Positions 12,303 to 62,182 of a stretch of DNA of 64,000 nucleotides are shown here, piece after piece. Every line of letters begins with the position of its first letter. The stretch's first letter is position 1. The stretch is from a virus. The notes under the pieces were generated by a model. That model searched no databases. It saw only the letters and a program-made list of their open reading frames with translations, and was not told where the DNA came from. The position numbers and the translations under genes are program-made. The stretch spans positions 1 through 64,000 of IMG/VR virus record IMGVR_UViG_3300032236_001530; one strand, 5' to 3'.

Positions 12303-12602
12303 ATGAAACATCTAAAAAAATATAATGAAAACAAATCATCTTATAGATTAACTATAGTTGATTTTACTGGAGGTGGTGACGGTGTTACTGCTCTTTATGT
12401 TAATGGCGAATTAGAAAAATATGGTGATTACTACCACGATAAAATTGATGAGTGGATTGAAGGATTTGAAGCCGGTGTTAAAATGACTGGTGCTTTTGTA
12501 GAAGTTGAAAAAGAAGAGTGTAAAGACGCTGATATGATTGAAGCCATATCTGAGTTGGCAGATACACCACCACAATCAATACACGATGTTAGAGGAATAT
12601 GA
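12303..12602 (+). CDS. Leader-bearing small protein
   Basis: 99 residues starting MKHLKKYNE-NKSS, with TTAATATATA 4 nt before the ATG. Body beta-rich then acidic helix (EVEKEECKDADMIEAISELA), ending VRGI. Its stop overlaps the next leader gene (ATGA), starting a four-gene leader operon to 14246. Function unknown. Confidence 0.65.
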   Translation: MKHLKKYNENKSSYRLTIVDFTGGGDGVTALYVNGELEKYGDYYHDKIDEWIEGFEAGVKMTGAFVEVEKEECKDADMIEAISELADTPPQSIHDVRGI

Positions 12603-13015: not shown

Positions 13016-13017
13016 GT

Positions 13018-13440
13018 ATGAGATACTTGAAAACATATAAAATATTTGAATCATCACATGATGAAATGATGAATGTTCGTTATGGTGCTGATGTAGTGCA
13101 AGAATGTGATTCCGTCATTGCTGATATCAAAGATATGTTATTAGAATTAACAGACGTTGGTCTTCACACTTCAGTTGGTTATACACCAATGACATTAGCA
13201 TATCAAGAAAAAACACCTAAAATATGTGTTGAGATATCAACTTATGTTGGTGTAATAACCGCAAGGACAAGGGTTCATACTGCTGGTAAATTTTTAAAAG
13301 GTGATACCGATTACACATCAGAAGTTAGAGAAACTATTGAAAGAATAAAAGAATATGTTAAGTCAAGAGGTTATCTTAAAGGTGATGGTGAGTGGGAAAG
13401 TAATCACAGACAGATATATCAAATGCTAATACAAAAATGA
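13018..13440 (+). CDS. Leader-bearing putative internal head protein (paralogous family)
   Basis: 140 residues from the ATG at 13018, 2 nt after the previous stop; the longer frame from 12979 lies inside the upstream gene. Leader MRYLKTYKIFE-SSH. Family helix DVADIKDMLLELTDVGL-like (ADIKDMLLELTDVGLHTSVG), then strands, then a second helix (VRETIERIKEYVKSRGYLKG). A clean example of the two-helix family plan. Confidence 0.74.
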   Translation: MRYLKTYKIFESSHDEMMNVRYGADVVQECDSVIADIKDMLLELTDVGLHTSVGYTPMTLAYQEKTPKICVEISTYVGVITARTRVHTAGKFLKGDTDYTSEVRETIERIKEYVKSRGYLKGDGEWESNHRQIYQMLIQK

Positions 13441-22407: not shown

Positions 22408-22865
22408 GATACTTAAAATCATATAAATTATTTGAAGCCAGATTTGTAGAATTTAGAGAAATTGTTTCTACGATTAAAGATATCTGTCAAGAGTTTGAAG
22501 ATAATAATTGTAGATGTGAAATAGAACCAAAAGATGATATTCAATTAAATATTATATCACTTAAAAGTAGAGGACATCTTAGTAGTTTAACAATACCTTT
22601 TTATCTTGAAATAAATATTGATAGAATAATAATTAAACAAGATGATAATAGAAGTGGGTTTGGTGAATTTCCAGAATGGTTTATAGAGACATGTAGAAGA
22701 ATAGAAGATTTTATGTTATCTGAAGGTTTCAAAACTTTACCATCAGTTAGATATACCGTTGATTGGGAAAACTTTGATACAATTGATGAGTTAGAAGAAC
22801 AAACTGGATTAATATCAAAAGTAAAATTAGAATTTATACCTAATGAAGTACCTAAAGAAATATAA
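22404..22865 (+). CDS. Leader-bearing putative internal head protein (paralogous family)
   Basis: 153 residues, leader MRYLKSYKLFE-ARF. Family helix IVSTIKDICQEFEDNNCRCEI, strands, second helix (FIETCRRIEDFMLSEGF), ending LEFIPNEVPKEI. Its last 23 nt also encode, in another frame, the start of the next gene. Function unknown. Confidence 0.72.
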   Translation: MRYLKSYKLFEARFVEFREIVSTIKDICQEFEDNNCRCEIEPKDDIQLNIISLKSRGHLSSLTIPFYLEINIDRIIIKQDDNRSGFGEFPEWFIETCRRIEDFMLSEGFKTLPSVRYTVDWENFDTIDELEEQTGLISKVKLEFIPNEVPKEI

Positions 22866-23235
22866 GCTATTTGAATCCTATAAAGAAATACTAGATAACA
22901 TCGAAGATATCTTTCGTGAGATAGAAGATGTTGGATTTAGAATTGAATATAACAAAGGTGGAGTTGATGAAATAACTAAAATCTATATTGAGAAATTTGA
23001 TGCTAATAATGATTCAATACCTTATATACCAAATCAAGATTTTGTACTGGCTTTACAACATTTAATTTCATACCTCAGTAAAGATTATGATATTGAAATA
23101 GAAACTATACACCAATCACAATGTGTTGATTTTTTAAGCACAAAAGATGGCTTAACCGAAAAAGACGCTACAATCATAGGTGATTATAAAGCACCTATTG
23201 ATTATATTAGAATTGTAATAAGTAATAAAGATTAG
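22843..23235 (+). CDS. Leader-bearing putative internal head protein (paralogous family)
   Basis: 130 residues, leader MKYLKKYKLFE-SYK. Family helix ILDNIEDIFREIEDVGFRIEY, strands, second helix (ALQHLISYLSKDYDI). The leader codons overlap the end of the previous gene in a different frame, so both sequences are constrained. Third gene of the 21193-23235 leader operon. Confidence 0.72.
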   Translation: MKYLKKYKLFESYKEILDNIEDIFREIEDVGFRIEYNKGGVDEITKIYIEKFDANNDSIPYIPNQDFVLALQHLISYLSKDYDIEIETIHQSQCVDFLSTKDGLTEKDATIIGDYKAPIDYIRIVISNKD

Positions 23236-23237
23236 TA

Positions 23238-23615
23238 TTAGTATATACCTTGTCCAAATGAATCGTGTTTAATTGATTCCTTACAATATAAATCCCAAAT
23301 TAAAAGTGCAGTACAATTAGTATTTTGTATAATCAATTCACATTCTTCCGGAACATCATCATAGTGAATATCAATTTCTAATTCTTTTATCTTACTCCAT
23401 TTCCAAGCACCTTCAGTGAAGTAAATATTTTCTTCTGGTATATTTAACCTCTTAGCAACCGAATAAACATCTGGGTTTTTTTGATCCGAACAACGAGCCG
23501 TGATGATAAAAACATTACAAGCTTCAGCCGATTTAAGCAATAAATTAGCTTTACACTGGATGATATCCTCACCCAGAGTACAATCAAAATCAAAGCTAAT
23601 TTTTAACGGTTTCAT
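23238..23615 (-). CDS. HAD-like phosphatase/nucleotidase
   Basis: 125 residues from the ATG at 23615 (ATGA overlap with the upstream HAD gene). Motif I F-D-F-D-C-T-L-G-E, motif II V-F-I-I-T-A-R, and H-Y-D-D-V-P late in the protein. Short, without a large cap. Together with 23612-24121 it forms a pair of nucleotidase-like genes. Confidence 0.68.
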   Translation of the reverse strand: MKPLKISFDFDCTLGEDIIQCKANLLLKSAEACNVFIITARCSDQKNPDVYSVAKRLNIPEENIYFTEGAWKWSKIKELEIDIHYDDVPEECELIIQNTNCTALLIWDLYCKESIKHDSFGQGIY

Positions 23616-24121
23616 AATAAATATTCTAATACTGATTTCCAATTTGGAAACTTATCAGTTGCAAAGTGAATGTGTTCTCCTTTAAATTCTGTTACCCCAT
23701 ATTTCTTTCTATCATCAATTAAAGCTCTACCTGTAAATAAACTTTTATCATTTGATAGAATCAATCTTTTATAAGCTACTTCACCTAAATACTTTTCAAC
23801 CCATATTCTTTTATCTGTATAACAAGAAACATTTTCCCAACAAGGTGCTGATAAAATATAAACTTCATATTTTTCTGATAACTTCTTAAAGGCTTCAATA
23901 GCACCTTCAACTGGTGGTAAATCAATATAAAACCCTTGAGTATGATAAAACTTCTTTTTGAATAAATCATCAACTGATAATCCTAACTTATCAGACCAAA
24001 CTTTCATACCGGCTTCAGCGTCAGCAAGTACGCCATCCATATCAATAAATAAAAGCTCTTTAGGATTTTTTAGATATCCATAAACTGGATCCTTTTCGCT
24101 ATTTCCATATAACTCACTCAT
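23612..24121 (-). CDS. 5'(3')-deoxyribonucleotidase-like HAD protein
   Basis: 169 residues. Motif I F-I-D-M-D-G-V-L-A-D (about 24-33), a cap helix region with FYIDLPPVEGA, motif II Y-I-L-S-A-P, and A-L-I-D-D-R-K-K with the terminal acidic motif. This order is typical of 5'(3')-deoxyribonucleotidases, which dephosphorylate deoxynucleotides. TATATTTG lies just upstream on the minus strand. Plausible role in nucleotide pool control during infection. Confidence 0.75.
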   Translation of the reverse strand: MSELYGNSEKDPVYGYLKNPKELLFIDMDGVLADAEAGMKVWSDKLGLSVDDLFKKKFYHTQGFYIDLPPVEGAIEAFKKLSEKYEVYILSAPCWENVSCYTDKRIWVEKYLGEVAYKRLILSNDKSLFTGRALIDDRKKYGVTEFKGEHIHFATDKFPNWKSVLEYLL

Positions 24122-24157
24122 ATCACAAATATATGGATATTATATGAGAAATCAAAG

Positions 24158-24667
24158 TTATAGTTTCATTTCAATTCTTAAACTTGAAAAAGAAATATAA
24201 TCACCTATACCATTAAAATCATCTGGTTTATACCAACCTATACCAAACTCAATACCACTATTAAACATTCTAAAAGGTGAGTTAGTATTGTATTTAATTC
24301 CTATTTTAGCAAGTTCTTGAGCGGTTTTACCACTAATACCTGGTGTTAATTCATTACCAGAGTAATCATAATACCAATCATTTAATCTAATGATGGCATC
24401 TTTAACTTCTTTCCATAAAAATAAACTACCAGGATATTTACCACCAGGAGGAGCTGGAACATTTGGTATAACTCTGTCAGGAGATCCCCAGGGTCTCTGA
24501 ATACGGATTTCTAAATAAATATCTGAATGTTTTTTACCTTCAACATCTTTTCTTAATCTAGAAGTTTCGACTTGAAGACCATTATCTTCTACTTCAACAA
24601 GGATGTCTCTTACCTCATTTTCCAATTCATCTATATTAAATGACTCAAACAACTTTAGATATTTCAT
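24158..24667 (-). CDS. Leader-bearing putative internal head protein (paralogous family)
   Basis: 169 residues, leader MKYLKLFE-SFN. Family helix IDELENEVRDILVEVEDNGL, strands with a Pro/Gly-rich loop, a second helix region (EVKDAIIRLNDWYYD), ending SLRIEMKL. Although on the minus strand it has AAATATATAATCCT before the ATG, so the AT element follows the leader class, not the strand. Confidence 0.72.
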   Translation of the reverse strand: MKYLKLFESFNIDELENEVRDILVEVEDNGLQVETSRLRKDVEGKKHSDIYLEIRIQRPWGSPDRVIPNVPAPPGGKYPGSLFLWKEVKDAIIRLNDWYYDYSGNELTPGISGKTAQELAKIGIKYNTNSPFRMFNSGIEFGIGWYKPDDFNGIGDYISFSSLRIEMKL

Positions 24668-24700
24668 AGGATTATATATTTATTTTAATATATACTTTTA

Positions 24701-25096
24701 ATGAGATACTTAAAACTATTTGAATCATTCACATCTATTGGTGATTTAGTACAAGATGCTAAAGATATCTGTTTAGAATTAAATGATGATGGTATAACAA
24801 CCAAATGTTATTATAATCCACCTTACGTTATTAATAGTAATATTCATCCTGAGTTTATATCCATTGGAATGGAAAGACTTGTAAGTGATGAAAATGATTA
24901 TTATGATGTTTTAAGTTGGGGTGAGATTAATGAAGTAATTGATAGATTAATTTATTACTTTGAATCAAATAATTGGAAATTATCAAGTATTTTAATAGAT
25001 GGTGATAATTTAATTAACCCTAAAGAATGGATAGAATCACTTAGAAAAAAAGTTCATTATTCTTTTACTGGAATAACAATTAATTTCTCAAAATAA
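24701..25096 (+). CDS. Leader-bearing putative internal head protein (paralogous family)
   Basis: 131 residues, leader MRYLKLFE-SFT, TTAATATATA 6 nt upstream. Family helix LVQDAKDICLELNDDGI, strands, second helix (INEVIDRLIYYFESNNW), ending FTGITINFSK. Divergent from its paralog at 24158; the two share a 33 bp intergenic region with an element for each direction. Confidence 0.74.
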   Translation: MRYLKLFESFTSIGDLVQDAKDICLELNDDGITTKCYYNPPYVINSNIHPEFISIGMERLVSDENDYYDVLSWGEINEVIDRLIYYFESNNWKLSSILIDGDNLINPKEWIESLRKKVHYSFTGITINFSK

Positions 25097-28569: not shown

Positions 28570-29313
28570 CTATTTTCTTTTTTTAAGAAACTCTTTTGTT
28601 TTATCTAATAAATATTTAGGTAAAGCATTACCAACAAGTGCGTATTTATTCTTAATATCTCTACCTAATTCTTTAGCACTAAAGAAATTACCAGATAATT
28701 TAACTTCATATTTTTTGCCTCTGTATGTAACGGTAATTAAGTATTTATAAAAATCAGAATCCGATGGCTCAACATTTATAACTTTAATTAATTCTATTTC
28801 TTTGAAAGCTCTTGTGATTAGTTCTGACTTTTCTTTAGTCATTTTTTCTTGATATTCCATCATTGCTAATTTAGCTTCATCTGGAATAGATTTAATTCTA
28901 TCTACAATTTCTCTTTTCTCTTCTGATTGCCAATCTATGTAGAATGGATCATCGTTGTTTCTTGGTCTAAAAACATCATAATATAATTTTTCACCATCTA
29001 CCACACCACCTTGACCCCAGTGTGTTCCACCAGAATAAGAACCTAATTCAGATGCTTCTTGAGGAATATAATCCCAAGTTAATCTTAGTTTGTAACCATC
29101 TTTGAAATTAATACGGTACATATTAGCAGTTTTATTATGACCATAGAAACGACCAGGGTTAGTTGAACACCAGTTAGTATCTTTGTTTTGTTGCTTAACA
29201 GAATCAAATGTCTTAGACACCTTAACTTCAAGATTATCATCTTTGTAAAGAGTAGGTGTGTTTTGTGATGTTTCAACAAACTCAAATAATTTATATGTTA
29301 TTAAATATTTCAT
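28570..29313 (-). CDS. Leader-bearing protein with Trp-Cys motif domain
   Basis: 247 residues, leader MKYLITYKLFE-FVE; AATATATAATC before the ATG. An N-terminal domain has T-N-W-C-S-T-N-P-G (about 45-55) followed by Y-R-I-N-F and L-R-L-T-W-D-Y, a pattern I associate with uncharacterised phage virion proteins. C-terminal part helical then beta with a basic end LKKRK. Function unknown; packaging inferred. Confidence 0.65.
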   Translation of the reverse strand: MKYLITYKLFEFVETSQNTPTLYKDDNLEVKVSKTFDSVKQQNKDTNWCSTNPGRFYGHNKTANMYRINFKDGYKLRLTWDYIPQEASELGSYSGGTHWGQGGVVDGEKLYYDVFRPRNNDDPFYIDWQSEEKREIVDRIKSIPDEAKLAMMEYQEKMTKEKSELITRAFKEIELIKVINVEPSDSDFYKYLITVTYRGKKYEVKLSGNFFSAKELGRDIKNKYALVGNALPKYLLDKTKEFLKKRK

Positions 29314-29316
29314 TGA

Positions 29317-30405
29317 TTATATATTATTTCTCAACCAATTAATTTTTGATTCGTGTAGTAATAAACAAGGGCTTGTTGTAAAGAATTCAAATCCAAATTG
29401 CTTTGCTTTATTAAACCTACCTAATTTAGAAGTATCTCTAATTACTTCAAGTTCCTTAGGTACTTCAAAACCCTTTGAATACTTGGTCATAATAAATAAA
29501 TCATCTGTAAACTCTTGATCTATCTTTGACCAAAGTGCTAAGTCAGGTGAGCCAGCAAATACAATTTGTGAATTATCAAATGGTATTACTAAATAATTAT
29601 CAGAGCCAGAACCAAAGTAGTTGGCTCCTTCTTTTGTAGTAGAGCCAATTAAACTTTTATATCTTGGAACTGGATAATCTTTTCTTAAATCAAAAAATGT
29701 TTTATAATTGTACTTTCCAATAGTTCCTTTTCTTTCCTTTTCTAAGAATAAACCTAATTGACCAAAATCTCTACCTGATTTTCGCCAGAGTTGGTCATTC
29801 ATAAAAGAAAAGTTTTTACAATTCTCTTTTAATATTTTTAAGAATTCTTCTTCACTTATTTTTTTGGTTCTTGATGTAGAATCTCTTGAAACTAAAGTAT
29901 CAACCGATTCATTTATAGTAAGTAATTCCTCACATCTATTTAAATTATCCATTTGAAAATCAGACATTCTATCAGATGAGAATATTTGTTTTGCTTCTTC
30001 TAATGTAACCCATTTCCACTCATCAACTTCTGGAAAGACTGGCTTACCATTTCTGATAACCATTGAATCACAATGTAAATTAAAACCAGAAAGATCTTCT
30101 TCAACTTTAACAAAAAATCCTTTCAGATATTTGTTAGAATCTTTGTATTTAAGCTCATTAAAATCTCCCTGGTGGACGATCGTTAACTCATCCAATACAA
30201 TACCTGTTTCTTCAAATAACTCTCTTTTTGCTACTTCAAATTGGTTAGTTTCACCTTTATCTGCTCTACCTTTAGGAACTCCCCAAACGGTAGATCTAAA
30301 TCCTGTTGGATGTTGTATCAATAACAAATTATTAGCATCAAATAGATAGATACCACAAGTTATTCTTTTCTCTAAAGATTCGTTATATGTTTTTAAGTAT
30401 CTCAT
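29317..30405 (-). CDS. Leader-bearing Nudix hydrolase with C-terminal extension
   Basis: 362 residues. Leader MRYLKTYNE-SLE. Residues about 13-165 are a Nudix domain; the box reads G-R-A-D-K-G-E...A-K-R-E-L-F-E-E-T-G-I, one residue longer than the textbook G-x5-E-x7-R-E-U spacing. Nudix enzymes cleave nucleoside-diphosphate derivatives. The C-terminal ~190 residues form a separate domain (LWRKSG, YKSLIGSTT, NYLVIPFDN); a distant similarity to ADP-ribosyltransferases (R...STS) is possible but unproven. Its C-terminus abuts the Trp-Cys gene downstream. Confidence 0.75.
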   Translation of the reverse strand: MRYLKTYNESLEKRITCGIYLFDANNLLLIQHPTGFRSTVWGVPKGRADKGETNQFEVAKRELFEETGIVLDELTIVHQGDFNELKYKDSNKYLKGFFVKVEEDLSGFNLHCDSMVIRNGKPVFPEVDEWKWVTLEEAKQIFSSDRMSDFQMDNLNRCEELLTINESVDTLVSRDSTSRTKKISEEEFLKILKENCKNFSFMNDQLWRKSGRDFGQLGLFLEKERKGTIGKYNYKTFFDLRKDYPVPRYKSLIGSTTKEGANYFGSGSDNYLVIPFDNSQIVFAGSPDLALWSKIDQEFTDDLFIMTKYSKGFEVPKELEVIRDTSKLGRFNKAKQFGFEFFTTSPCLLLHESKINWLRNNI

Positions 30406-31012
30406 CTATTTTATTCGCCAATTGATAGTCTAACTCTGTGATTTTATCACCAGCATCATGTGTTGATAAAGTAAGTTCTATTTTGTTATATACCCAATTA
30501 ATTTCTGGATGATGATTCATCGATTCACAGATAGTAGCAAGTCTATTAATAAAAGCTAAAGCCTCGTTAAAATCTTTGAATTCAAATTTTCTTTTTAACT
30601 TATCATTCTTTTCAATCCATTTGAGTTCATTTTTATCAAAGATAAAAGCTATTTCATATATCATATTATTTTGAACAAACTCAGAATCACTAACAAATTG
30701 TCTAAAGTAATTCCAACCCGAACCTGAAAAGTTTTGAGACATATGGTGACGACTCTTTTGTGGATAATAGTTAAGAACTATTTTACCTAATCTCCAGTTA
30801 TCACTAATAACATCTAAAGATCTTTCAAAGTAATCTTTAACATCTGACCAATTAAATAATTTATCACGAGAAACATCAATAGAAACCATTTCTAGACCCT
30901 GTGGTCTAATATCCACATCAACATCATATCCATCGTCCTTTAACTCAAGGAATATGTCCTCAACGTCTTGTTCTAAAGATTCAAATAGTTTATATTTCTT
31001 TAAGTATTTCAT
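30383..31012 (-). CDS. Leader-bearing family domain fused to pterin-4a-carbinolamine dehydratase-like domain
   Basis: 209 residues. Leader MKYLKKYKLFE-SLE, then the family helix VEDIFLELKDDGYDVDV and strands to about 110. From about 135 the sequence matches the PCD/DCoH fold: FKDFNEALAFINRLA, then HHPEINW with the His-His-Pro, then LSTHDAGDKIT and a D-x-x-x-A end. That family dehydrates 4a-hydroxytetrahydrobiopterin. The stop of this gene overlaps the start of the Nudix gene by 23 nt. Confidence 0.75.
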   Translation of the reverse strand: MKYLKKYKLFESLEQDVEDIFLELKDDGYDVDVDIRPQGLEMVSIDVSRDKLFNWSDVKDYFERSLDVISDNWRLGKIVLNYYPQKSRHHMSQNFSGSGWNYFRQFVSDSEFVQNNMIYEIAFIFDKNELKWIEKNDKLKRKFEFKDFNEALAFINRLATICESMNHHPEINWVYNKIELTLSTHDAGDKITELDYQLANKIDEILKNI

Positions 31013-36161: not shown

Positions 36162-37700
36162 TTATTTAATTTGAAACAAATCTTTATATGTAGTGATAGT
36201 TGATTTATCTATTCTAACATTAATATGACTAGGATCTAACTTATCAGTTGTATCAACTCCCATAGCCGCCATAACTTCTTTAACCTCGTGTATAATAGCT
36301 TTGTGATAGTTATAAACACGAACTCTTTTTTCAGCTGGATTAAGACCTTTAACTAAGTGAGGATTTTGAGTAGCAATACCAACAGGACAAGTATTCTTAT
36401 TACATTCTCTTGCTTGAATACAACCTAAACTCAACATAAAAGCTCTAGCAGCATTTACGCAATCCGCACCAATTGATAACAATTTAACGATATCAAAGCT
36501 TGTAGAAGCTTTACCAGAAGCAATAATTTTAACTTGGTCTCTTAAACCATTTAATTTCAATTGTTGATCAATAAAAACTAAAGCATCTACTAATGGTGTA
36601 CCAATACTATTTGTGAAAACAATTGGAGCAGCACCAGTTCCACCTTCACCACCATCAATTGTGATAAAGTCTGGGAAGGTGTTAATTTTTTTCATATGGG
36701 CAATTAACTCAGCTACTTCTTGTTCATCACCTAAGCACATTTTAATACCAATAGGTTTGCCGTTACTTAATTGACGAAGTTTCTTTACGAAACGTAACAT
36801 ACTATCTGGGTTATTAAAAGCGGTATGATAAGGAGGACTCATTACATCAACGCCTGGTTCAACACCGCGAATTTCAGCAATTTCTTTTGTATTCTTTTTA
36901 GCAGGTAAGATACCACCATGACCAGGCTTAGCACCTTGAGATAATTTAATCTCAATCATTTTAACTTGCGGTAACATAGCATTTCTTTTGAAAGCAGCAT
37001 CGTCAAAAACTCTAACACCTTTTTCAGTTTTACCAGCACCAAAATAACCTGTACCTATTTGAAAACAAAGGTCACCACCTTCTTCTTTGTGATAAGGAGA
37101 TAAACCGCCTTCACCTGTGTTTTGATAAAAGTTACCTAATTTAGCACCACCATTGATGGCTTTAACAGCAGCATCAGAAAGAGCACCATAACTCATAGCA
37201 CTTACATTAAATATACTGGCACTATAAGGTCGAGTGCAGAATTTAGAACCGATTGTAACTCGTGGTTCTGTTATTTGTTTAATATCTTTAGGATACATTG
37301 AGTGTTTAACAAACTCATATCCTTTTTCATAAACATCTAATTGAGTACCAAAAGGAGTTGTATTAATATCACCTTTTGCTTTTTGATAAACATCAGAACG
37401 AGCCTCACGATTGTAAGGAGTACCGTTGGTATCATCTTCAATAAAATATTGTTGAATTTTACTTCTTTCATGCTCAAATACCCAACGAAGTCTACCGATT
37501 AAAGGGTAGTTTCTAAGAAGTGAGTGTTGGGTTTGTATAATATCATGTATAACTACCCCAAGACCGATACCGGTCAGGATAGTTATAAACAATGATATTT
37601 CAAAAGAAGTTGTACTTTTTGATAGGAATGTTAATGTGGCAAATAAAGCAGTCAATATAATAAAGATTGCTAAAATCTTACCTCTTGTTAATTTGCTCAT
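36162..37700 (-). CDS. Membrane-anchored FMN-binding glutamate synthase-like oxidoreductase
   Basis: 512 residues. Two membrane helices at about 10-55, then the GltB-type FMN/iron-sulfur domain. Visible signatures: NTGEGGLSPYH, QIGTGYFGA, IEIKLSQGAKPGHGG, FITIDGGEGGTGA, IIASGKASTSFD, GADCVNAARAFM, and the Fe-S cysteines C-I-Q-A-R-E-C-N-K-N-T-C-P-V-G. It matches the stand-alone glutamate synthase-like proteins common in bacteria, whose exact reaction is often unknown. Odd cargo for a phage. The -7 box TATATTTG is at 37720-37727. Confidence 0.85.
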   Translation of the reverse strand: MSKLTRGKILAIFIILTALFATLTFLSKSTTSFEISLFITILTGIGLGVVIHDIIQTQHSLLRNYPLIGRLRWVFEHERSKIQQYFIEDDTNGTPYNREARSDVYQKAKGDINTTPFGTQLDVYEKGYEFVKHSMYPKDIKQITEPRVTIGSKFCTRPYSASIFNVSAMSYGALSDAAVKAINGGAKLGNFYQNTGEGGLSPYHKEEGGDLCFQIGTGYFGAGKTEKGVRVFDDAAFKRNAMLPQVKMIEIKLSQGAKPGHGGILPAKKNTKEIAEIRGVEPGVDVMSPPYHTAFNNPDSMLRFVKKLRQLSNGKPIGIKMCLGDEQEVAELIAHMKKINTFPDFITIDGGEGGTGAAPIVFTNSIGTPLVDALVFIDQQLKLNGLRDQVKIIASGKASTSFDIVKLLSIGADCVNAARAFMLSLGCIQARECNKNTCPVGIATQNPHLVKGLNPAEKRVRVYNYHKAIIHEVKEVMAAMGVDTTDKLDPSHINVRIDKSTITTYKDLFQIK

Positions 37701-42153: not shown

Positions 42154-45100
42154 ATGGCTATTAAATACATTATAGATAACTCAGATAACTCATTAGGTAC
42201 TCAAAGTATAAATGGTACCGTTTCCGTTGGCAACTTAACAATAACCGATATACAATCAACCACCGGTCTAACAAACTATGTAGTTGTTGATAGTGATGGT
42301 AATACTTTCTATCAAACAGGTGGTGGAGGTGGAACAAGTAGTCCTATTTTAGGAACATCACACTCTGTTCCTATGTATAACACTAATGGTATTGGATTAA
42401 CAGATAGCGTTGCTTACATTTTCCCAGCTAAATATAATAACACTGCATCAAATGGCTACTCAAATCCTATACCGGATACTTTAATAGTTGGTGGTACTAA
42501 AATTGGCGCTTCAACAAATTATCCACAAACGGTTGGTGTTATTGATAATGGTACAACAGCAAATGGTTTAGCTAGATATCCACAACTTATGGTAATCGCG
42601 GGTACAGCTTACCCTGGTGGTTACACAGCTGGTGTTGCTGCTATTAGTGCTATGGTTATTGATGGTGTTAAAAATAGAAGAGCAACTTTATTTTATAACT
42701 ACAATGATGGAGTTTGGGGCTTATCAGATACAGGGTCTACTGGGGGTGACACATTTGCTTTGTTTCAATCAACAAAAAGAGTGATGTCTGTTTTTAGTAC
42801 AGGTCATGTTAACTTTCAAAATGGTGGTACACATTCAGATTCTGGTAATTTCTTTACCATTGTTGGTACTTCATCTTTCACTGGTGGCAAATTAGAAATA
42901 GGAACAGATTCTGGAATACAACTTTTGGGTTTAACTTCAGGTACTCCTACTTCAACTGGTCAGGCAATTGGTGTTGATGCGTCAGGTAATATTATTACGG
43001 TAGTTGGTGGGGGTGGTAGCACGGGCTCATCTGGATCTAGTGGTTCCTCTGGATCTAGTGGTACATCAGGGTTTAACGGTTCAAGTGGATCTTCCGGATC
43101 TTCTGGTACTTCAGGTAATAGTGGATCTTCGGGTACTTCAGGTAATAGCGGATCTTCTGGTTCCTCAGGCTCATCTGGTTTAAGTGGTTCTTCAGGATCA
43201 TCCGGTGTAAATGGTACATTTATGGGATCTAGTGGTACATCTGGTGTTAGTGGATCATCAGGTTCAAGTGGTATATCAGGTTCTTCTGGATCAAATGGGT
43301 CTTCAGGTACATCTGGTATATCGGGGTCTTCTGGATCAAGCGGATCTTCAGGTTCCTCTGGATCGAGCGGTTCATCTGGTATATCGGGTTCTTCTGGATC
43401 AAATGGGTCTTCAGGTACATCTGGTTTATCCGGTTCTTCTGGGTTAAGTGGATCTTCAGGTTCCTCTGGATCAAGCGGTTCAAGTGGTATTAATGGATCT
43501 AGTGGTTCATCTGGCTTATCAGGATCTAGTGGCTCATCTGGATATAGTGGATCTTCAGGTTCCTCTGGAACAAGTGGTTCTTCTGGGTTATCAGGATCAA
43601 GTGGATCTTCGGGTATTGATGGATCAAGTGGATCATCTGGCTTATCAGGATCTAGTGGCTCTTCAGGTTTATCTGGATCAAGTGGTTCATCTGGCTTATC
43701 TGGATCAAGTGGATCTTCGGGTATTGATGGATCAAGTGGCTCTTCAGGTTTATCTGGATCAAGTGGCTCTTCAGGTTTATCTGGATCAAGTGGATCTTCG
43801 GGTTTATCTGGATCAAGTGGATCTTCGGGTTTATCTGGATCAAGTGGCTCTTCAGGTTTATCTGGATCAAGTGGATCTTCGGGTATTGATGGATCAAGTG
43901 GCTCTTCAGGTTTATCTGGATCAAGTGGATCTTCGGGTTTATCTGGATCAAGTGGATCATCTGGCTTATCAGGATCAAGTGGATCATCTGGTTCATCGGG
44001 ATCAAGTGGTTCAAGTGGTAACTCAGGTTCTTCAGGATCAAGTGGTTCATCTGGCTTATCAGGATCGAGCGGTTCATCTGGATTATCTGGATCGAGCGGT
44101 TCATCAGGTTTATCTGGCTCAAGTGGATCTTCGGGTATTGATGGATCAAGTGGATCTTCAGGTCTATCAGGATCAAGTGGCTCATCCGGATTATCAGGAT
44201 CAAGTGGTTCATCAGGTTTATCAGGATCGAGTGGTTCTTCCGGGTTATCTGGATCAAGTGGTTCCTCTGGGTTTGGTGGATCAAGTGGCTCATCCGGATT
44301 ATCAGGATCAAGTGGCTCATCTGGATTATCAGGATCAAGTGGCTCATCAGGTCTATCAGGATCAAGTGGATCTTCGGGTTTATCAGGATCAAGTGGCTCA
44401 TCTGGGGTTGATGGATCGAGCGGTTCATCGGGTTTATCAGGATCAAGTGGCTCATCAGGTTTATCAGGATCAAGTGGATCATCTGGCTTATCAGGATCAA
44501 GTGGATCATCTGGCTTATCAGGATCAAGCGGCTCATCTGGCTTATCAGGATCAAGTGGATCTTCGGGTTTATCAGGATCAAGTGGCTCTTCAGGAAACTC
44601 TGGTTCCAGTGGATCAAGTGGCACATCTGGATTATCTGGTTCTAGTGGATCATCCGGTACATCGGGTAGTAGTGGCTCAAGTGGTACATCCGGTTCACAT
44701 GGTTCATCTGGATCAAGTGGAACTTCTGGATCAAGTGGCTCATCTGGATCAAGTGGAACATCAGGTGTTAACGGTTATTCAGGAGTTGATGGTACATCTG
44801 GATCTTCAGGATCTTCTGGTAACTCCGGTTCAAGTGGTTCATCAGGTAACTCCGGTTCAAGTGGTTCATCAGGTAATTCTGGATCAAGTGGCTCATCGGG
44901 TAACTCTGGTAGCAGTGGTTCATCAGGATCTTCTGGTAGTTCAGGATTGAGTGGATCTTCTGGTAGTAGTGGAACATCGGGTAAAGATGGTCCATTAAAT
45001 GGTCCTTATTCTAATCCAAATGGTCCGGTTACTGGTGGTTATCTTGGTCAATTATATTTTGGTTCAGATGGTAGTGTTTGGAATTGGAATGGTAGTAGCT

Positions 45101-45654
45101 GGTTATATAGTGGTAACATATCTGGTTCTTCTGGATCAAGTGGTTCATCTGGTGTTAATGGATATGGTTCATCAGGATCTTCGGGTGTCAGTGGATCAAG
45201 TGGGTCATCAGGTGTTTCTGGATCATCAGGATCTTCAGGTGTTAGTGGATCATCAGGTGTTTCTGGATCAAGCGGCTCTTCTGGTGTTAATGGATCAGGA
45301 TCAAGTGGGTCATCTGGTATTAGCGGTTCATCTGGATCAAGTGGTTCATCCGGTGTTAATGGTTCTGGATCAAGTGGATCAAGTGGGTCATCAGGAACTG
45401 ATGGATCAAGTGGTTCATCCGGTGTATCTGGATCAAGTGGTTCATCCGGTGTTAGTGGTGGTGTGACTAATGCAGGTGCTTTAGCCACTGCTTGGGGTCT
45501 ACCAGGTGATTTAAAAAATGGTAATTGCCAACCTCTTGATGGTGATGGTAACCCAATAGGACCCGCGGGTATATGGGTATTTAGATATGATGGTGATCCA
45601 GATGCAACCTATGGTCCTTGTTTTAAACTTAAAATATGTTGTGAATTACCTTAA
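42154..45654 (+). CDS. Collagen-like Gly-Ser-rich tail fibre
   Basis: 1166 residues; TTAATATATA 4 nt before the ATG. N-terminal ~285 residues are a non-repetitive fibre base (GTVSVGNLTITDIQS, TGLTNYVVVDSDGN, FFTIVGTSSFTGGK). From about 290 to 945 and again from about 990 to 1105 Gly occurs every third residue, mainly as GSS-GSS-GLS with few Pro. Between the two lies a globular insert (about 948-990, QLYFGSDGSVWNWNGSSW). The C-terminal cap has Cys near the end (FKLKICCELP). A triple-helical virion fibre is likely; the dense Ser could be glycosylated by the nearby cluster. Confidence 0.88.
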   Translation: MAIKYIIDNSDNSLGTQSINGTVSVGNLTITDIQSTTGLTNYVVVDSDGNTFYQTGGGGGTSSPILGTSHSVPMYNTNGIGLTDSVAYIFPAKYNNTASNGYSNPIPDTLIVGGTKIGASTNYPQTVGVIDNGTTANGLARYPQLMVIAGTAYPGGYTAGVAAISAMVIDGVKNRRATLFYNYNDGVWGLSDTGSTGGDTFALFQSTKRVMSVFSTGHVNFQNGGTHSDSGNFFTIVGTSSFTGGKLEIGTDSGIQLLGLTSGTPTSTGQAIGVDASGNIITVVGGGGSTGSSGSSGSSGSSGTSGFNGSSGSSGSSGTSGNSGSSGTSGNSGSSGSSGSSGLSGSSGSSGVNGTFMGSSGTSGVSGSSGSSGISGSSGSNGSSGTSGISGSSGSSGSSGSSGSSGSSGISGSSGSNGSSGTSGLSGSSGLSGSSGSSGSSGSSGINGSSGSSGLSGSSGSSGYSGSSGSSGTSGSSGLSGSSGSSGIDGSSGSSGLSGSSGSSGLSGSSGSSGLSGSSGSSGIDGSSGSSGLSGSSGSSGLSGSSGSSGLSGSSGSSGLSGSSGSSGLSGSSGSSGIDGSSGSSGLSGSSGSSGLSGSSGSSGLSGSSGSSGSSGSSGSSGNSGSSGSSGSSGLSGSSGSSGLSGSSGSSGLSGSSGSSGIDGSSGSSGLSGSSGSSGLSGSSGSSGLSGSSGSSGLSGSSGSSGFGGSSGSSGLSGSSGSSGLSGSSGSSGLSGSSGSSGLSGSSGSSGVDGSSGSSGLSGSSGSSGLSGSSGSSGLSGSSGSSGLSGSSGSSGLSGSSGSSGLSGSSGSSGNSGSSGSSGTSGLSGSSGSSGTSGSSGSSGTSGSHGSSGSSGTSGSSGSSGSSGTSGVNGYSGVDGTSGSSGSSGNSGSSGSSGNSGSSGSSGNSGSSGSSGNSGSSGSSGSSGSSGLSGSSGSSGTSGKDGPLNGPYSNPNGPVTGGYLGQLYFGSDGSVWNWNGSSWLYSGNISGSSGSSGSSGVNGYGSSGSSGVSGSSGSSGVSGSSGSSGVSGSSGVSGSSGSSGVNGSGSSGSSGISGSSGSSGSSGVNGSGSSGSSGSSGTDGSSGSSGVSGSSGSSGVSGGVTNAGALATAWGLPGDLKNGNCQPLDGDGNPIGPAGIWVFRYDGDPDATYGPCFKLKICCELP
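43018..44990 (+). repeat. Tandem coding repeat of the collagen-like fibre
   Basis: Imperfect tandem array with a 9 bp base unit and a 27 bp higher unit (GGA-TCA-AGT / GGC-TCA-TCA / GGT-TTA-TCA encoding GSS-GSS-GLS). Serine codons alternate between AGT and TCN types in a regular order. The array creates long open frames on both strands, which are shadows. Such a tract is expected to change length by slippage or recombination. Confidence 0.9.
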
Positions 45655-54083: not shown

Positions 54084-54842
54084 TTACAATAAATTAAAAT
54101 TATCTTTGTCTTTTATAAAAGGTAATTGTGTTCTTACCTTGTTTAATTCAAGCTTAGATAGTGTTGTAGTAAAAACATCCTCACTTTGTGAACTTATATA
54201 AAGCGTTTCACCTAAAGCATTTACTAAAGAAGTATCACCGTTATATGATAAATTATTACCGTCTTCACCAATTCTATTAACACCAATTACATAACATTGA
54301 TTCTCAATAGCTCTTGCTACTAATAAACTTCTCCAAGCCAATTTTCTTTTATTTGGCCAGTTAGCCACATAAATTAAAACATCATAATCTTCTACGTTTC
54401 TAGACCAAACAGGAAATCTTAAATCATAACAAATCAGTGGACAGATTTTCCAATCTTTATATTCAATAATTAATTTTGAATTACCTGGTGTATAATGTTC
54501 GTCTTCACCAGCAAATGAGAAAAGATGTCTTTTATCATAATGATGAATAGAACCATCAGGATTGACCCAAATAAATCGGTTGAAGTATTTACCTTCTTCT
54601 TCAATTATAATTGAACCACATATCGCTAAATCTTTCTCAGAGGCATTCTGCTTCATCCATTGAGTAGTTTTGCCGTCCATTTTTTCTGCATGTGGTTTTG
54701 GGTTCATTGTGAATCCAGTAGTAAACATTTCAGGTAAGATAATTAAATCAGATTCTATATTATCAATTTTACTTTGATAATTTTTAAGATTGGAATCTAT
54801 ATCTTCCCAGATTATATTAGTTTGTATTGTTGTTATGTTCAT
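54084..54842 (-). CDS. Carbon-nitrogen hydrolase (omega-amidase type nitrilase)
   Basis: 252 residues from the ATG at 54842 (TAATG overlap with the IscA-like gene). Catalytic triad positions are visible: Glu in LIILPEMFTTGF, Lys in H-Y-D-K-R-H, and Cys in CPLICYDLRFPVW. Matches omega-amidase YafV-like enzymes that hydrolyse alpha-ketoglutaramate-type amides. A metabolic repair enzyme, rare in phages. Confidence 0.87.
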   Translation of the reverse strand: MNITTIQTNIIWEDIDSNLKNYQSKIDNIESDLIILPEMFTTGFTMNPKPHAEKMDGKTTQWMKQNASEKDLAICGSIIIEEEGKYFNRFIWVNPDGSIHHYDKRHLFSFAGEDEHYTPGNSKLIIEYKDWKICPLICYDLRFPVWSRNVEDYDVLIYVANWPNKRKLAWRSLLVARAIENQCYVIGVNRIGEDGNNLSYNGDTSLVNALGETLYISSQSEDVFTTTLSKLELNKVRTQLPFIKDKDNFNLL

Positions 54843-55165
54843 TATATAGAAAAGGACTGACCGCAACCACAATTTCTTGAGGCATTGGGATTGTTAAATG
54901 TAAAACCTTTACCGTTAAGACCACCAGAGTAATCTAATTCTGTTCCAAATAAATAAAGAAAGCTTTTTTTATCACAAACAATCTTTACACCTTTGTCTTC
55001 AAATTCTTGATCGCCTTCACTTAATTTATCATCAAATGAAAGATCATAAGATAATCCAGAGCAACCACCACCTTTAACACCAACACGAATGAATGGATTG
55101 ATGAGGTCTTCTTCTTTCATTAATTTAATAGCTTGTTCTTTGGCAGACTCAGTTATAGTTATCAT
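54842..55165 (-). CDS. HesB/IscA-family iron-sulfur carrier
   Basis: 107 residues, full family length. Conserved cysteines: GGGCSGLSYDL (about 34-44) and C-G-C-G-Q-S-F near the end. Binds and transfers Fe-S clusters or iron. Coupled to the nitrilase. The glutamate synthase-like protein at 36162 carries Fe-S cysteines and is one possible client. Confidence 0.9.
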   Translation of the reverse strand: MITITESAKEQAIKLMKEEDLINPFIRVGVKGGGCSGLSYDLSFDDKLSEGDQEFEDKGVKIVCDKKSFLYLFGTELDYSGGLNGKGFTFNNPNASRNCGCGQSFSI

Positions 55166-59216: not shown

Positions 59217-59474
59217 ATGAGAATTAAAAGATTTAACGAGGATTGGGAATATACAATTACTGAAAAAGATGATGAGTTAAGTATTTTGGGTAGTGATGCT
59301 TACAAATCACCACATTCAAACTCGGTTGTTAAACTATCAACTACTAAGAATAAAAACGGTAGAACCGAAGCAATCATTATTCAAACTAATCAACACGGAA
59401 CAATTATTAATGACCCAGCTGGAATTGATAAGATAATAGATTGGTTAATGGAATACAAAGATAGAATGTATTAA
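59217..59474 (+). CDS. Leader-bearing small protein (duplicate of the gene at 4910)
   Basis: 85 residues, TAAATATATA 6 nt upstream. Leader MRIKRFNE-DWEY. Homologous over full length to the protein at 4910-5167, with identical LGSDAYKSP-type and NDPAGIDK segments. The two genes are 54 kb apart. Function unknown; packaged location inferred. Confidence 0.72.
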   Translation: MRIKRFNEDWEYTITEKDDELSILGSDAYKSPHSNSVVKLSTTKNKNGRTEAIIIQTNQHGTIINDPAGIDKIIDWLMEYKDRMY

Positions 59475-59495
59475 TCAAAACTATTTAAAATAAAA

Positions 59496-59519
59496 AAGAC
59501 CAAGATAAATCTTGGTCTT
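59496..59519 (-). terminator. Terminator of the RNA locus
   Basis: Stem AAGACCAAG/CTTGGTCTT; on the minus strand a T-rich run follows. It lies just after the last hairpin of the giant RNA region and closes the minus-strand transcript that includes the tRNAs. Confidence 0.8.
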
Positions 59520-59524
59520 AAAAA

Positions 59525-60450
59525 TAAAACGCTGAGATTACACGTTCAGTGTGGCATCTTTGACTGGATTATTGTTTCCCAGTTTTATCCACCATCTTTT
59601 GAATGGTATCACCACAGTGACGGTTAGTTTGACTAACCACTTCTTGAGTTACTGAATACTCTCCACTTACTCTGCTTACTCAACCCTCGCAGGCTGATTC
59701 GGGATTCGACCCCCTATAAGTTTTTCGATGAAATCACATCCGCCTTTCGAGCTTATGTGGCTATGGACATCCCATAACTAAGTAGTCACCTTTCTATCAG
59801 TAACTAGGTAACACTTTCGATTTAAGTTTTAATTTTTACGTCAAAAAGTAAATTTTAGTGCTTGTAGATTGTGTCGAAGTAGTGGTCACCTCTCAGCTCC
59901 CAAAGCTTTTGGCCTCAAGAATACTGGACTACTCCGTGTGATGCCTCCATCACAACTCTTTAAGATATCTTCACCACGATTCACCTTACGGCTCACCTAC
60001 ACCCTTGGTAGAGTGATTAGTGTTCATTAACAGCACCACCTGTACAATGAATTGTCTTTCGACTTTGAGACACCTCTCAAGTTGAAACTCGCGATGATAA
60101 TAACTGGTGGGTCACCATTTCTCGCAAAATTTCTACAGGTTATTCTTATTGCTCTTCCGAACTCAACTGAACAATCTACACTTGCCCAGTCACCAATCCA
60201 TTTCCCTACGGAGTTACCCTCAGTACTTCAGGATTAGTGATATCCTGCTTGCTTACTCGACCTTGGTTACCCAAGACGCAAACACAATTCGCAGTTGTGT
60301 TCACTTTATCCCCCTTTCAAGGTTTATTTAACGACTATAAGCGGCCGTTGTCTTCACATTAGCCGAAGCTAATGATTCAACATATCATTCAAGGATTAAT
60401 AGACCTCACTGTCTATCAACTTACGTCTCTTGTGAGAGAACCTTTAATTT
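59525..60450 (-). ncRNA. Large structured non-coding RNA (GOLLD/ROOL-like candidate)
   Basis: About 930 nt with no credible gene and visibly higher GC than the coding DNA. On the minus strand many local hairpins are perfect: ATTAGC-TTCG-GCTAAT (60358-60373), CTTGG-GTAA-CCAAG (60262-60275), AACACAA/TTGTGTT (60281-60301), TTGAGA-GGTG-TCTCAA (60065-60080), TGTGATG-GAGG-CATCACA (59937-59954), GGTTAGT/ACTAACC (59622-59638). UUCG and GNRA loops are hallmarks of selected RNA structure. Size, tRNA neighbours and phage context fit the GOLLD/ROOL kind of RNA, but I cannot align it. Ends are approximate. Confidence 0.75.
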
Positions 60451-60514
60451 CAAAGAACTTTATTTATAGTTTTTATTTTTACTTTGTTTAGAAAAATAAA
60501 AAATATTTTTTCTG

Positions 60515-60586
<72 letters not shown>

Positions 60587-60594
60587 ATTTGTAG

Positions 60595-60754
60595 TAGCCC
60601 GTAGAGGATTCGAACACTCTGTTTTCTAACCGAAAAGTTAGACGTCCTAAACATCAGGTCACGACTTGAGAGGATTGGCACCTTCTCATAACCCACCTTG
60701 GAGTCGTTTTGTTGACCGTCTGTTTCTCTTGCGAGTCCAGTAGACGAACGGGCC
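60595..60754 (-). tRNA. Interrupted tRNA (Glu-like) with ~85 nt structured insertion in the D-loop
   Basis: The 5' part (GGCCCGT, TC, GTCTACTGG) and the 3' part (TTTAGGAC, anticodon arm, T-arm, ACGGGCT) pair into a tRNA: the seven-pair acceptor includes one G-T, and D-stem GTC pairs with GAC. Between them lie about 85 nt with their own stems: CTC-GCAA-GAG, GGTCA/TGACC, ACGACT/AGTCGT and a T-arm-like hairpin GAGAAGG...CCTCTC. The anticodon loop holds TTTTC but has 6 or 8 nt, not 7, and the T-stem has an extra base. It resembles the neighbouring tRNA-Glu. Spliced tRNA, pseudo-tRNA or tRNA-like RNA are all possible. Confidence 0.6.
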
Positions 60755-60813
60755 AAATAATTACCTAACATTGAACTTTTTGCCATATAGGACTTAGTCA
60801 AGTTAGGATTTTG

Positions 60814-60887
60814 TAGCGTGTAGAGGATTCGAACCTCTGTTCTTCGGGCGAAAACCCGACCGTCCTGAGCCGCTAGACGAACACGCC
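60814..60887 (-). tRNA. tRNA-Glu(TTC)
   Basis: 74 nt with all arms intact: acceptor GGCGTGT/ACACGCT, D-arm GTCTA-GCGGCTC-AGGAC, anticodon stem TCGGG/CCCGA with loop TTTTCGC giving TTC, T-arm AGAGG-TTCGAAT-CCTCT. No encoded CCA (the sequence continues CAAAA). About 10 nt downstream of promoter P4. Confidence 0.95.
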
Positions 60888-60904
60888 ATTTGTTTTTTGT
60901 TTCA

Positions 60905-60936
60905 CAAAGATAAGAAGAATTTTTTAATCTACCAAA
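60905..60936 (-). promoter_or_regulatory. Promoter P4 of the RNA locus
   Basis: Minus strand TTTG (60933-60936), 20 nt spacer, TATCTTTG (60905-60912). Expected start is about 10 nt before tRNA-Glu. Part of a set of near-identical repeats with P2 and P3 (shared GATTTGGTAGATTAAAAAA and TTATCTTTGT). Confidence 0.82.
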
Positions 60937-60959
60937 TCTTTTTTCAATTTTTTTTATCT

Positions 60960-61035
60960 CGATTTAGTTGTTTACCTCCTTTCTGCCTGTAATCGGGAGG
61001 ATTACTGTATAATCAGGCTATTAACTTCTAAACCG
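60960..61035 (-). ncRNA. Small structured RNA unit C
   Basis: On the minus strand an 8-pair stem CGGTTTAG/CTAAATCG (one G-T) encloses GCCTG/CAGGC and TAATC-CTCCC-GATTA. The hairpin loop CTCC can pair with the downstream AAAGGAGG, a possible pseudoknot. It begins at the expected start of promoter P3. No reading frame. May be a separate small RNA or a leader of the tRNA transcript. Confidence 0.5.
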
Positions 61036-61046
61036 ATTTTGTTTTA

Positions 61047-61078
61047 CAAAGATAAGGAGACTTTTTCATTTCACCAAA
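61047..61078 (-). promoter_or_regulatory. Promoter P3 of the RNA locus
   Basis: Minus strand TTTG (61075-61078), 20 nt spacer, TATCTTTG (61047-61054). Same sequence family as P2 and P4. Followed by structured unit C. Confidence 0.8.
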
Positions 61079-61107
61079 TCTTTTTTTATTTTTTTTTCAA
61101 AGAACTT

Positions 61108-61123
61108 ATCAGACGTTTCTGAT
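61108..61123 (-). ncRNA. Hairpin following promoter P2 (unit B)
   Basis: Perfect hairpin ATCAGA-AACG-TCTGAT starting about where the P2 transcript should begin. Only about 16 nt, then an A-rich stretch and promoter P3. May protect the 5' end of the RNA. Weak evidence alone; notable because each promoter here is followed by a hairpin. Confidence 0.4.
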
Positions 61124-61131
61124 TTGTTTTA

Positions 61132-61163
61132 CAAAGATAAGGACACTTTTTTAATCTACCAAA
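61132..61163 (-). promoter_or_regulatory. Promoter P2 of the RNA locus
   Basis: Minus strand TTTG (61160-61163), 20 nt spacer, TATCTTTG (61132-61139). Spacer and flanks nearly identical to P4. Confidence 0.8.
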
Positions 61164-61175
61164 TCTTTTTCAAAA

Positions 61176-61252
61176 AAAGGGTTATGATTTTATCCTTCGT
61201 GATGGGGAGCGCTTATCATAATTAAGTTTTGCGTATTATACCAACACCCTTT
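61176..61252 (-). ncRNA. Small structured RNA unit A
   Basis: On the minus strand a closing stem AAAGGGT/ACCCTTT encloses TTATGAT/ATCATAA stacked next to it, with a long GC-containing loop (AAGCGCTCCCCATC). The 3' stem runs into a T stretch, so it may end its own transcript. Starts about 10 nt after the expected start of promoter P1. Otherwise unassigned. Confidence 0.5.
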
Positions 61253-61268
61253 GTTTCAATTGTGAATA

Positions 61269-61298
61269 CAAAGATAGTATATTATTTTTAATTACAAA
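61269..61298 (-). promoter_or_regulatory. Promoter P1 of the RNA locus
   Basis: Minus strand TTTTG (core TTTG 61295-61298), 18 nt spacer, TATCTTTG (61269-61276). Less similar to P2-P4 in the spacer but the same boxes. Divergent from the lipoprotein gene at 61334. Confidence 0.7.
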
Positions 61299-61333
61299 AG
61301 TTTTTCTAAAATAATTTTTCAATATATAATTTT

Positions 61334-62182
61334 ATGAAGAAGATAATTACTTATATATGTTTTTTAACCTTAATAACATCTTGTGGTTTGTTTAAAAACC
61401 ATGTTAAAAGTGTTGATAATATTAAAAATACTTCTACAGATACACTATATGTAAACTCAATTAATATAGACTCTGTAAAAGAAATAAAAACAGAGGAGAT
61501 GAAACCTGATGAAGATGGAGAAGGCGTTGTTGATGTTGCTGATGGCTTGGCTGGTATGGGTAGTAATGAACACTCAAGAAAGGCTAATAGAAGACCAAGT
61601 AGTATAGAAGATAAACCAATAGAAGATAAGACTACACAAGACCAAATAATTAATCCAAATTTAGGTCTTGTTGCTTATTCTGTTCCATTAGAAATGATTG
61701 TAGGCAAAACTTATACAGCTAAACTAAGAATATCTAAAGAAAAAAATAAAATTGAATTGATAGGAGGTGATGGTGATCCTATAAGTGATGTTACAATAGA
61801 TTCAAAGATTACAATTGCTTCTATTAGGGTTGAACCTATTATGTCATCATCGTTAATATCAGATAGCTCAAAAATGGTAATACAAAATATATCATCACAA
61901 ACACAGGATATTGACAAAGATGGGTTTACTGAGTGGGAATGGAGATTAACACCGATAAAAGGCGGTGATGTTTTGTTAAGAATTGTTGTTGATGTTATTG
62001 ATCCAGCTACTAAGGTTAAGAAAGACATACCCGTTTATGATAAAGTTATAAAAGTTAAATCAAACTTAATATACGATATGGGTTGTTTTGTTAAAGATTA
62101 CTGGCAATGGCTTATAACTACAATAGTACTTCCATTTATTATTTGGTTTTATAATAAAAGAAGAAAAGAAAAAGAATCGTAA
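61334..62182 (+). CDS. Lipoprotein with C-terminal membrane anchor
   Basis: 282 residues, AATATATAA before the ATG. Signal peptide and lipobox (ICFLTLITSC-GLF), a charged disordered region (about 55-105), a beta-sandwich-like domain (about 118-245: VPLEMIVGKTYTAKLRIS, then EWRLTPIKGGDVLLRIVVDV), and a C-terminal membrane helix (WQWLITTIVLPFIIWFY) with a basic end. Spanning from a lipid anchor to a membrane helix is unusual. It may connect the two membranes. Confidence 0.68.
   Translation: MKKIITYICFLTLITSCGLFKNHVKSVDNIKNTSTDTLYVNSINIDSVKEIKTEEMKPDEDGEGVVDVADGLAGMGSNEHSRKANRRPSSIEDKPIEDKTTQDQIINPNLGLVAYSVPLEMIVGKTYTAKLRISKEKNKIELIGGDGDPISDVTIDSKITIASIRVEPIMSSSLISDSSKMVIQNISSQTQDIDKDGFTEWEWRLTPIKGGDVLLRIVVDVIDPATKVKKDIPVYDKVIKVKSNLIYDMGCFVKDYWQWLITTIVLPFIIWFYNKRRKEKES

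What the first reader, a model, noticed from the sequence alone, without database searches (positions are those of the whole stretch)
59525..60450. A giant structured RNA next to phage tRNAs
About 930 nt without genes, elevated GC, and at least a dozen perfect hairpins with UUCG, GNRA and other stable loops, followed by an intrinsic terminator. Its strand and position (downstream of tRNA-Met in one transcript) match the habit of GOLLD and ROOL RNAs of phages, which assemble into large RNA-only complexes. A segment near 59695-59720 also resembles a T-arm. It may be a divergent member or a new class.
Basis: partly seen in the sequence, partly recalled or inferred. Interest (0 to 1): 0.87.

Follow-up and report, generated by a model that had tools for sequence, protein, structure and literature searches.

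The report
GOLLD RNA of a huge phage
The stretch encodes a GOLLD RNA, a known kind of giant phage RNA that assembles into hollow cages, and comparison with relatives suggests that phages of this group make it the way bacteria make ribosomal RNA, with a ribosomal-RNA-type antitermination signal in front and, in most relatives but not here, a tRNA-like element right behind.

Summary
The minus strand at 60351-59529 (823 nt) is a complete GOLLD RNA: Rfam RF02032 matches 59529-59936(-) over its whole length (269.8 bits, cut-off 150). The half that Rfam does not model is the ordinary GOLLD 5' domain: 33 of 34 viral contigs found by a motif from that half alone also carry RF02032. A 24-sequence alignment supports 198 pairs in 36 helices, 142 with changes on both sides. 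The "T-arm" at 59700-59714 is a GOLLD hairpin whose loop centre is CG in 8 and GC in 16 of 24 sequences, the switch reported for the self-kissing loop L21a. So it is a new member of a known family, not a new class.

New here is the flanking logic. The RNA lies last in an operon with four tandem Bacteroidota-type promoters, tRNA-like genes, tRNA-Met and a terminator. An rRNA-type boxA (GTTCTTTGA) precedes it. GTTCTTT[GA]A precedes the 5' domain in 40/41 records, against 21/388 control stretches. In 19/35 GOLLD loci an acceptor-plus-T-arm element starts 2-22 nt after the 3' end (0.25 expected), often as a defective tRNA; the window has a terminator instead. I infer rRNA-type antitermination, and RNase P processing in relatives. 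Neither is shown by experiment.

The parts
61269..61298 (-). Bacteroidota-type promoter (TTTG-N-TAnnTTTG), first of four in tandem
   Evidence: Pattern match; 18 in window vs 4.2 expected
61132..61163 (-). Bacteroidota-type promoter, second
   Evidence: a boxA follows it
61097..61105 (-). boxA copy 1 (GTTCTTTGA), behind the second promoter
61047..61078 (-). Bacteroidota-type promoter, third
60905..60936 (-). Bacteroidota-type promoter, fourth
60813..60887 (-). tRNA-Glu-like gene with a 6-nt anticodon loop (TTTTCG)
   Evidence: ARAGORN tRNA-???; Rfam tRNA 47.1 bits; loop read from sequence
60596..60754 (-). tRNA-like element with roughly 85 extra nt in the D loop and a 6-nt anticodon loop
   Evidence: Read by eye from the sequence; not called by ARAGORN or Rfam; acceptor and anticodon stems present in its fold, but fold no better than shuffles
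60514..60586 (-). tRNA-Met (CAT)
   Evidence: ARAGORN, Rfam 62.9 bits
60450..60458 (-). boxA copy 2 (GTTCTTTGA) directly before GOLLD
60352..60449 (-). Variable leader between boxA and the GOLLD 5' domain, with hairpins
   Evidence: Not conserved in relatives
59937..60351 (-). GOLLD 5' domain
   Evidence: Homologous in 24 non-redundant GOLLDs; its motif finds GOLLD in 33 of 34 records
59529..59936 (-). GOLLD 3' domain
   Evidence: RF02032, 269.8 bits, model 1-416 of 416
59819..59879 (-). Unpaired A/U-rich linker inside the 3' domain (no tRNA in it)
   Evidence: Unpaired in Rfam model and in consensus structure; limits read from the sequence
59700..59714 (-).
   Evidence: Loop centre CG in 8, GC in 16 of 24 sequences; compare
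59488..59519 (-). Intrinsic terminator (10-bp stem, U tract)

Best explanation
The feature is a full-length GOLLD RNA of about 823 nt, carried by a large phage that is probably a virus of Bacteroidota. It is the last unit of a stable-RNA operon built like a ribosomal RNA operon: tandem promoters, boxA, tRNA-like genes, tRNA-Met, a second boxA, GOLLD, terminator. Shown by computation: family membership, both domains, covarying structure, the association with boxA, and in relatives with a tRNA-like element at the 3' end. Inferred: (1) boxA recruits the host NusB-S10 antitermination complex, so that RNA polymerase reads the long untranslated RNA without Rho termination, possibly also helping it fold; (2) RNases that mature tRNA-Met separate GOLLD from it, and the terminator sets the 3' end here, where relatives use an acceptor-plus-T-arm element as a probable RNase P signal; (3) the RNA assembles into a hollow cage through its kissing loops, like the solved GOLLD env-38. 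For the last step, use, I lean towards a container that holds or shields a cargo (its own linker, tRNAs, or ribosomal or other host components) during lytic growth; that is a guess at about 0.3.
For: RF02032 over the full model. 5'-domain motif finds GOLLD in 33/34 records. 24-sequence structure: 96.1% of cells paired, covariation 0.678 vs 0.247 shuffled and at most 0.127 slid. Length 823 nt vs 833 for env-38. Loop dinucleotide CG/GC in 24/24, matching the reported L21a switch. boxA 27-119 nt before the 5'-domain anchor in 40/41 records, 23/24 non-redundant, vs 21/388 control stretches; same motif in Bacteroidota 16S leaders, 30/75 exact vs 0.2 expected. Four promoters in tandem, terminator, tRNA-Met. 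tRNA-like element after the RNA in 19/35 loci vs 0.25 expected.
Against: No transcript, processing or binding data. boxA is missing at LR756502, at Lactobacillales-type GOLLDs and at Acinetobacter phage Herod, so it is not needed by GOLLD as such. The window itself has no tRNA-like 3' element. The structure was derived from the same alignment on which it was scored. Host phylum is inferred from promoter and boxA type only.
Confidence: 0.75

Rival explanations
1. A new class of giant phage RNA that only resembles GOLLD in its 3' half, with an unrelated 5' half.
For: Rfam models the 3' half only; BLAST finds the 5' half in just two phage records.
Against: A motif of the 5' half alone retrieves RF02032 carriers in 33 of 34 records; the 5' half aligns and covaries with them throughout.
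Confidence: 0.02
2. The GTTCTTT[GA]A motif before GOLLD is not boxA but a part of the RNA's own fold or a promoter element.
For: It sits close to the 5' domain in nearly every record and often shortly after a promoter.
Against: Its distance from the 5' domain varies from 27 to 119 nt; it occurs alone between tRNA genes and in rRNA leaders and spacers of Bacteroidota.
Confidence: 0.2
3. The tRNA-like elements behind GOLLD in relatives are decaying tRNA genes of a recombining tRNA island, not processing signals.
For: GOLLDs lie in tRNA-rich loci, and pseudo-tRNAs near GOLLD are known; some of the odd elements are related to one another.
Against: They start at a near-constant distance from the RNA end, keep acceptor and T-arm while losing other arms, and odd loops are enriched there (7/14) over other tRNAs of the same loci (4/96, p = 2.8e-5).
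Confidence: 0.35
4. This GOLLD copy is a decayed, non-functional remnant that no longer assembles.
For: The related huge phage LR756504 has tRNA clusters but no GOLLD, so the RNA is dispensable in this group. It has lost the tRNA-like 3' element seen in relatives.
Against: The helices are kept with compensatory change, the loop dinucleotide is self-complementary, and promoters, boxA and terminator are intact.
Confidence: 0.05

Closest known systems
GOLLD RNA, Rfam RF02032 (solved example: env-38 14-mer cage, PMC12286853)
   Same: Full-length match of the 3' domain, homologous 5' domain, similar total length (823 vs 833 nt), downstream of tRNA-Met as env-38 is, self-complementary loop with the GC/CG switch, phage host with tRNA genes nearby.
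   Different: Terminator instead of a following tRNA; boxA in front, a feature of this branch that I did not find described; no tRNA in the linker.
GOLLDs of uncultured huge phages LR745206.1 and LR756502.1
   Same: Closest sequences: 82% and 77% identity in the 3' domain, 77% and 75% in the 5' domain.
   Different: Both are followed by tRNA-like elements; LR756502 lacks the boxA.
ROOL and OLE RNAs
   Same: Giant ornate RNAs that form multimers; ROOL is also a phage RNA and a cage (PMC12286853).
   Different: The region matches no other Rfam family but tRNA meaningfully.
Ribosomal RNA operon with boxA antitermination
   Same: boxA after a promoter and again before a long structured RNA, tRNAs in the same unit.
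   Different: No rRNA; action of the Nus factors untested.
RNase P-made 3' ends by a tRNA-like element (mammalian MALAT1 mascRNA, own knowledge)
   Same: Relatives carry a tRNA-like element immediately after the RNA.
   Different: Not present in the window; cleavage untested.

Membership tests
GOLLD (RF02032) | Match of the conserved 3' domain above the Rfam gathering score | tested here: met
   269.8 bits vs 150, model 1-416 of 416
GOLLD (RF02032) | A 5' domain homologous to that of other GOLLDs | tested here: met
   33/34 records found by the 5' motif carry RF02032; alignment of 24
GOLLD (RF02032) | Covarying ornate secondary structure | tested here: met
   96.1% of cells paired, 142 pairs with changes on both sides
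GOLLD (RF02032) | Phage or prophage location near tRNA genes | tested here: met
   Virus record, tRNA-Met upstream
GOLLD (RF02032) | Self-complementary kissing loop L21a (GC or CG) | tested here: met
   CG here, GC or CG in 24/24; loop assigned by position offset to env-38
GOLLD (RF02032) | Assembly into a 14-mer RNA cage | not testable with these tools
   Needs mass photometry or cryo-EM
ROOL / OLE RNA | Match to the Rfam model | tested here: not met
   No match at E up to 5 in 59400-61400
rrn-type boxA antitermination unit | boxA sequence as in the host phylum's rRNA leaders, after the promoter and before the long RNA | tested here: met
   host phylum itself inferred
rrn-type boxA antitermination unit | NusB-S10 binding and suppression of Rho termination | not testable with these tools
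   Needs binding and reporter assays

The most novel reading that the evidence does not exclude
Phages of Bacteroidota make GOLLD cages from operons that copy the ribosomal RNA operon: the host's boxA antitermination complex transcribes, and perhaps chaperones, the giant RNA. Across GOLLDs of several phage types, a degenerate tRNA that kept only what RNase P needs serves as a dedicated 3'-end processing signal, a phage counterpart of mascRNA-type processing.
Probability: 0.5. Interest if true: 0.7.

Novelty: new member of a known kind. Interest (0 to 1): 0.52.

Why it matters
The function of GOLLD, a natural RNA nanocage, is unknown, and so is how phages produce it. The conserved boxA and the tRNA-like 3' element give concrete, cheap tests of how it is transcribed and processed. 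They suggest that the phage treats GOLLD like ribosomal RNA, which would allow the amounts that a 14-copy cage needs.

Tried and rejected
Coding explanation: only short mechanical ORFs. New RNA class: rejected. ROOL, OLE and other families: no match. T-arm reading at 59695-59720: it is a GOLLD hairpin. Plasmid relatives: none. Two other 5'-domain patterns found nothing in viral contigs. boxA as a universal GOLLD feature: not so; absent from Lactobacillales-type records and from Acinetobacter phage Herod. GOLLD in LR756504: absent. Relatives of the virus record, and a phylum-wide search for prophage copies, could not be run. DNA similarity of 46.8-54.7 kb to known phages: none.

Full report
What is there. 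The minus strand of 59529-59936 matches the whole Rfam GOLLD model RF02032 with 269.8 bits (gathering score 150). The window is the first 64 kb of a 155,228-bp virus record that has one GOLLD. No ROOL, OLE or other family matches meaningfully. The region has no credible gene, a raised GC content and folds better than shuffles (z = -5.7).

The 5' half. Rfam models only the 3' domain, so the remaining 415 nt needed their own test. BLAST finds them only in two uncultured huge phages, LR745206.1 and LR756502.1, both of which carry RF02032 directly behind. A 21-base motif taken from the 5' half alone (GAGGGTAACTCCGTAGNGAAA) was then scanned through 2.9 million viral contigs. It hit 34 records, of which 33 carry RF02032; where the 3'-domain pattern could be placed it mostly lies some 540-580 nt downstream. 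With a separate scan for a 3'-domain pattern, in which 32 of 80 records proved to be GOLLD, this gave 65 GOLLD loci; 41 of them, 24 non-redundant, have this type of 5' domain. The alignments show a homologous 5' domain that starts at about window 60351. The RNA is thus 823 nt long, close to the 833 nt of the solved env-38 GOLLD.

Structure. RNAalifold on the 24 sequences gives 198 pairs, 142 with changes on both sides. Counted separately, 96.1% of cells pair against 74.3% in shuffles and at most 43.2% when partners are slid, and the covariation score is 0.678 against 0.247 and at most 0.127. The caveat is that the structure was derived from the same alignment. Both domains take part. Its loop centre is CG in the window's clade (8 of 24) and GC in the other 16. 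This is the switch that Kretsch et al. [quoted passage not shown] I assigned the loop by position offset, since the env-38 sequence was not at hand.

Operon. Reading down the minus strand, four Bacteroidota-type promoters (TTTG, spacer, TAnnTTTG) lie within 61298-60905; 18 such matches in the window stand against 4.2 expected. Then come a tRNA-Glu-like gene with a 6-nt anticodon loop (60887-60813), a second such element with roughly 85 extra nt in its D loop (60754-60596, read by eye), tRNA-Met (60586-60514), GOLLD, and a terminator (59519-59488). The host phylum is inferred from these promoters and from the boxA below. The nearest named phage is LR745206, to which two neighbouring proteins are 33% and 49% identical.

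boxA. The alignment of the flanks showed GTTCTTTGA or GTTCTTTAA shortly before the 5' domain. Counted, it lies 27-119 nt upstream of the 5'-domain anchor in 40 of 41 records (23 of 24 non-redundant), against 21 of 388 control stretches of the same loci. The exception is LR756502. The motif also stands upstream of 16S rRNA in Bacteroidota genomes: 30 of 75 exact within 500 nt, where shuffles give 0.2, and 58 of 75 with at most one mismatch, for which no chance rate was computed. It stands, with at most one mismatch, upstream of 23S in the three loci where that could be checked. In E. coli, boxA lies after promoter P2 and again before 23S, and is necessary and sufficient for the antitermination complex (PMC10250234); a boxA protects long untranslated RNA from Rho (PMC4807359). 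The window repeats this plan: one copy at 61105 behind a promoter, one at 60458 before GOLLD, and the only third copy at 3478, opposite a long ORF. In relatives boxA also stands between tRNA genes. It is absent from Lactobacillales-type records and from Acinetobacter phage Herod, so it belongs to this branch, not to GOLLD at large. I found no report of it: the cryo-EM paper does not mention boxA and the paper searches returned none, but the original GOLLD papers did not turn up in the library.

The 3' end. In the window a terminator stem begins 9 nt after the RNA. In most other GOLLDs a tRNA or tRNA-like element begins there. A search for an acceptor stem closing on a T-arm, starting 2-22 nt after the RNA, succeeds in 19 of 35 loci, Herod included. 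Shuffled flanks give 0.25, and other anchors in the same tRNA-rich loci 4.2%. Several elements are defective as tRNAs: no anticodon arm (L105), acceptor and T-arm only (L186), or anticodon loops of 5, 6 or 8 nt (L187, LR756502, L100, L190, loops read by eye). Among ARAGORN calls, odd loops make up 7 of 14 at this position and 4 of 96 elsewhere (p = 2.8e-5; some of the 14 are related to each other). What is kept is what RNase P recognises (established knowledge), so I infer a processing signal. A pseudo-tRNA inside a mycobacterial GOLLD gene was reported before (PMC6582537), and closeness to tRNA islands is known.

Verdict. Membership in GOLLD is secure; the cage is inherited from env-38 and untested here. 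What this adds is the rRNA-like make-up of the operon and the tRNA-like 3' signal of its relatives. Both rest on statistics over dozens of loci, and both need an experiment.

Noticed in passing
window 60813-60887 and 60596-60754; LR745206, LR756502, L100: tRNA-Glu-like genes with a consistent 6-nt anticodon loop (TTTTCR), some with long insertions in the D loop. Whether they are charged, or only serve RNA processing, is open.
   Followed up: partly
L106, L165, L177, L180, L184, L186: boxA motifs also stand before or between tRNA genes without GOLLD next to them, as if whole tRNA operons of these phages used rRNA-type antitermination.
   Followed up: partly
window 36162-37700 (-), 10029-10673 (-), 54842-55165 (-): Metabolic genes in the phage: glutamate synthase-like, ribulose-phosphate 3-epimerase, iron-sulphur assembly protein (Pfam).
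   Followed up: no
L196 7136-8566 (-), 10381-11313 (-), 14181-15341 (-); L193 18228-19499 (+): Elsewhere in the record, by eye: a nicotinamide phosphoribosyltransferase-like and a nicotinamide nucleotide adenylyltransferase-like gene (a possible NAD rebuilding pair), a polyphosphate kinase 2-like protein and an adenylosuccinate synthetase-like protein.
   Followed up: no
window 42154-45654 (+): A 1166-aa protein made largely of GSSGSSG repeats, the cause of the local GC peak at 43-46 kb; a shorter one lies at L195 11464-13410 (-).
   Followed up: no
window 356-787, 798-1433, 12599-13440, 22404-25096, 28570-31012 and others: Many otherwise different proteins begin with nearly the same peptide, M(K/R)YLK-(T/K/S)-YK-x-FES, as if they shared an N-terminal tag.
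   Followed up: no
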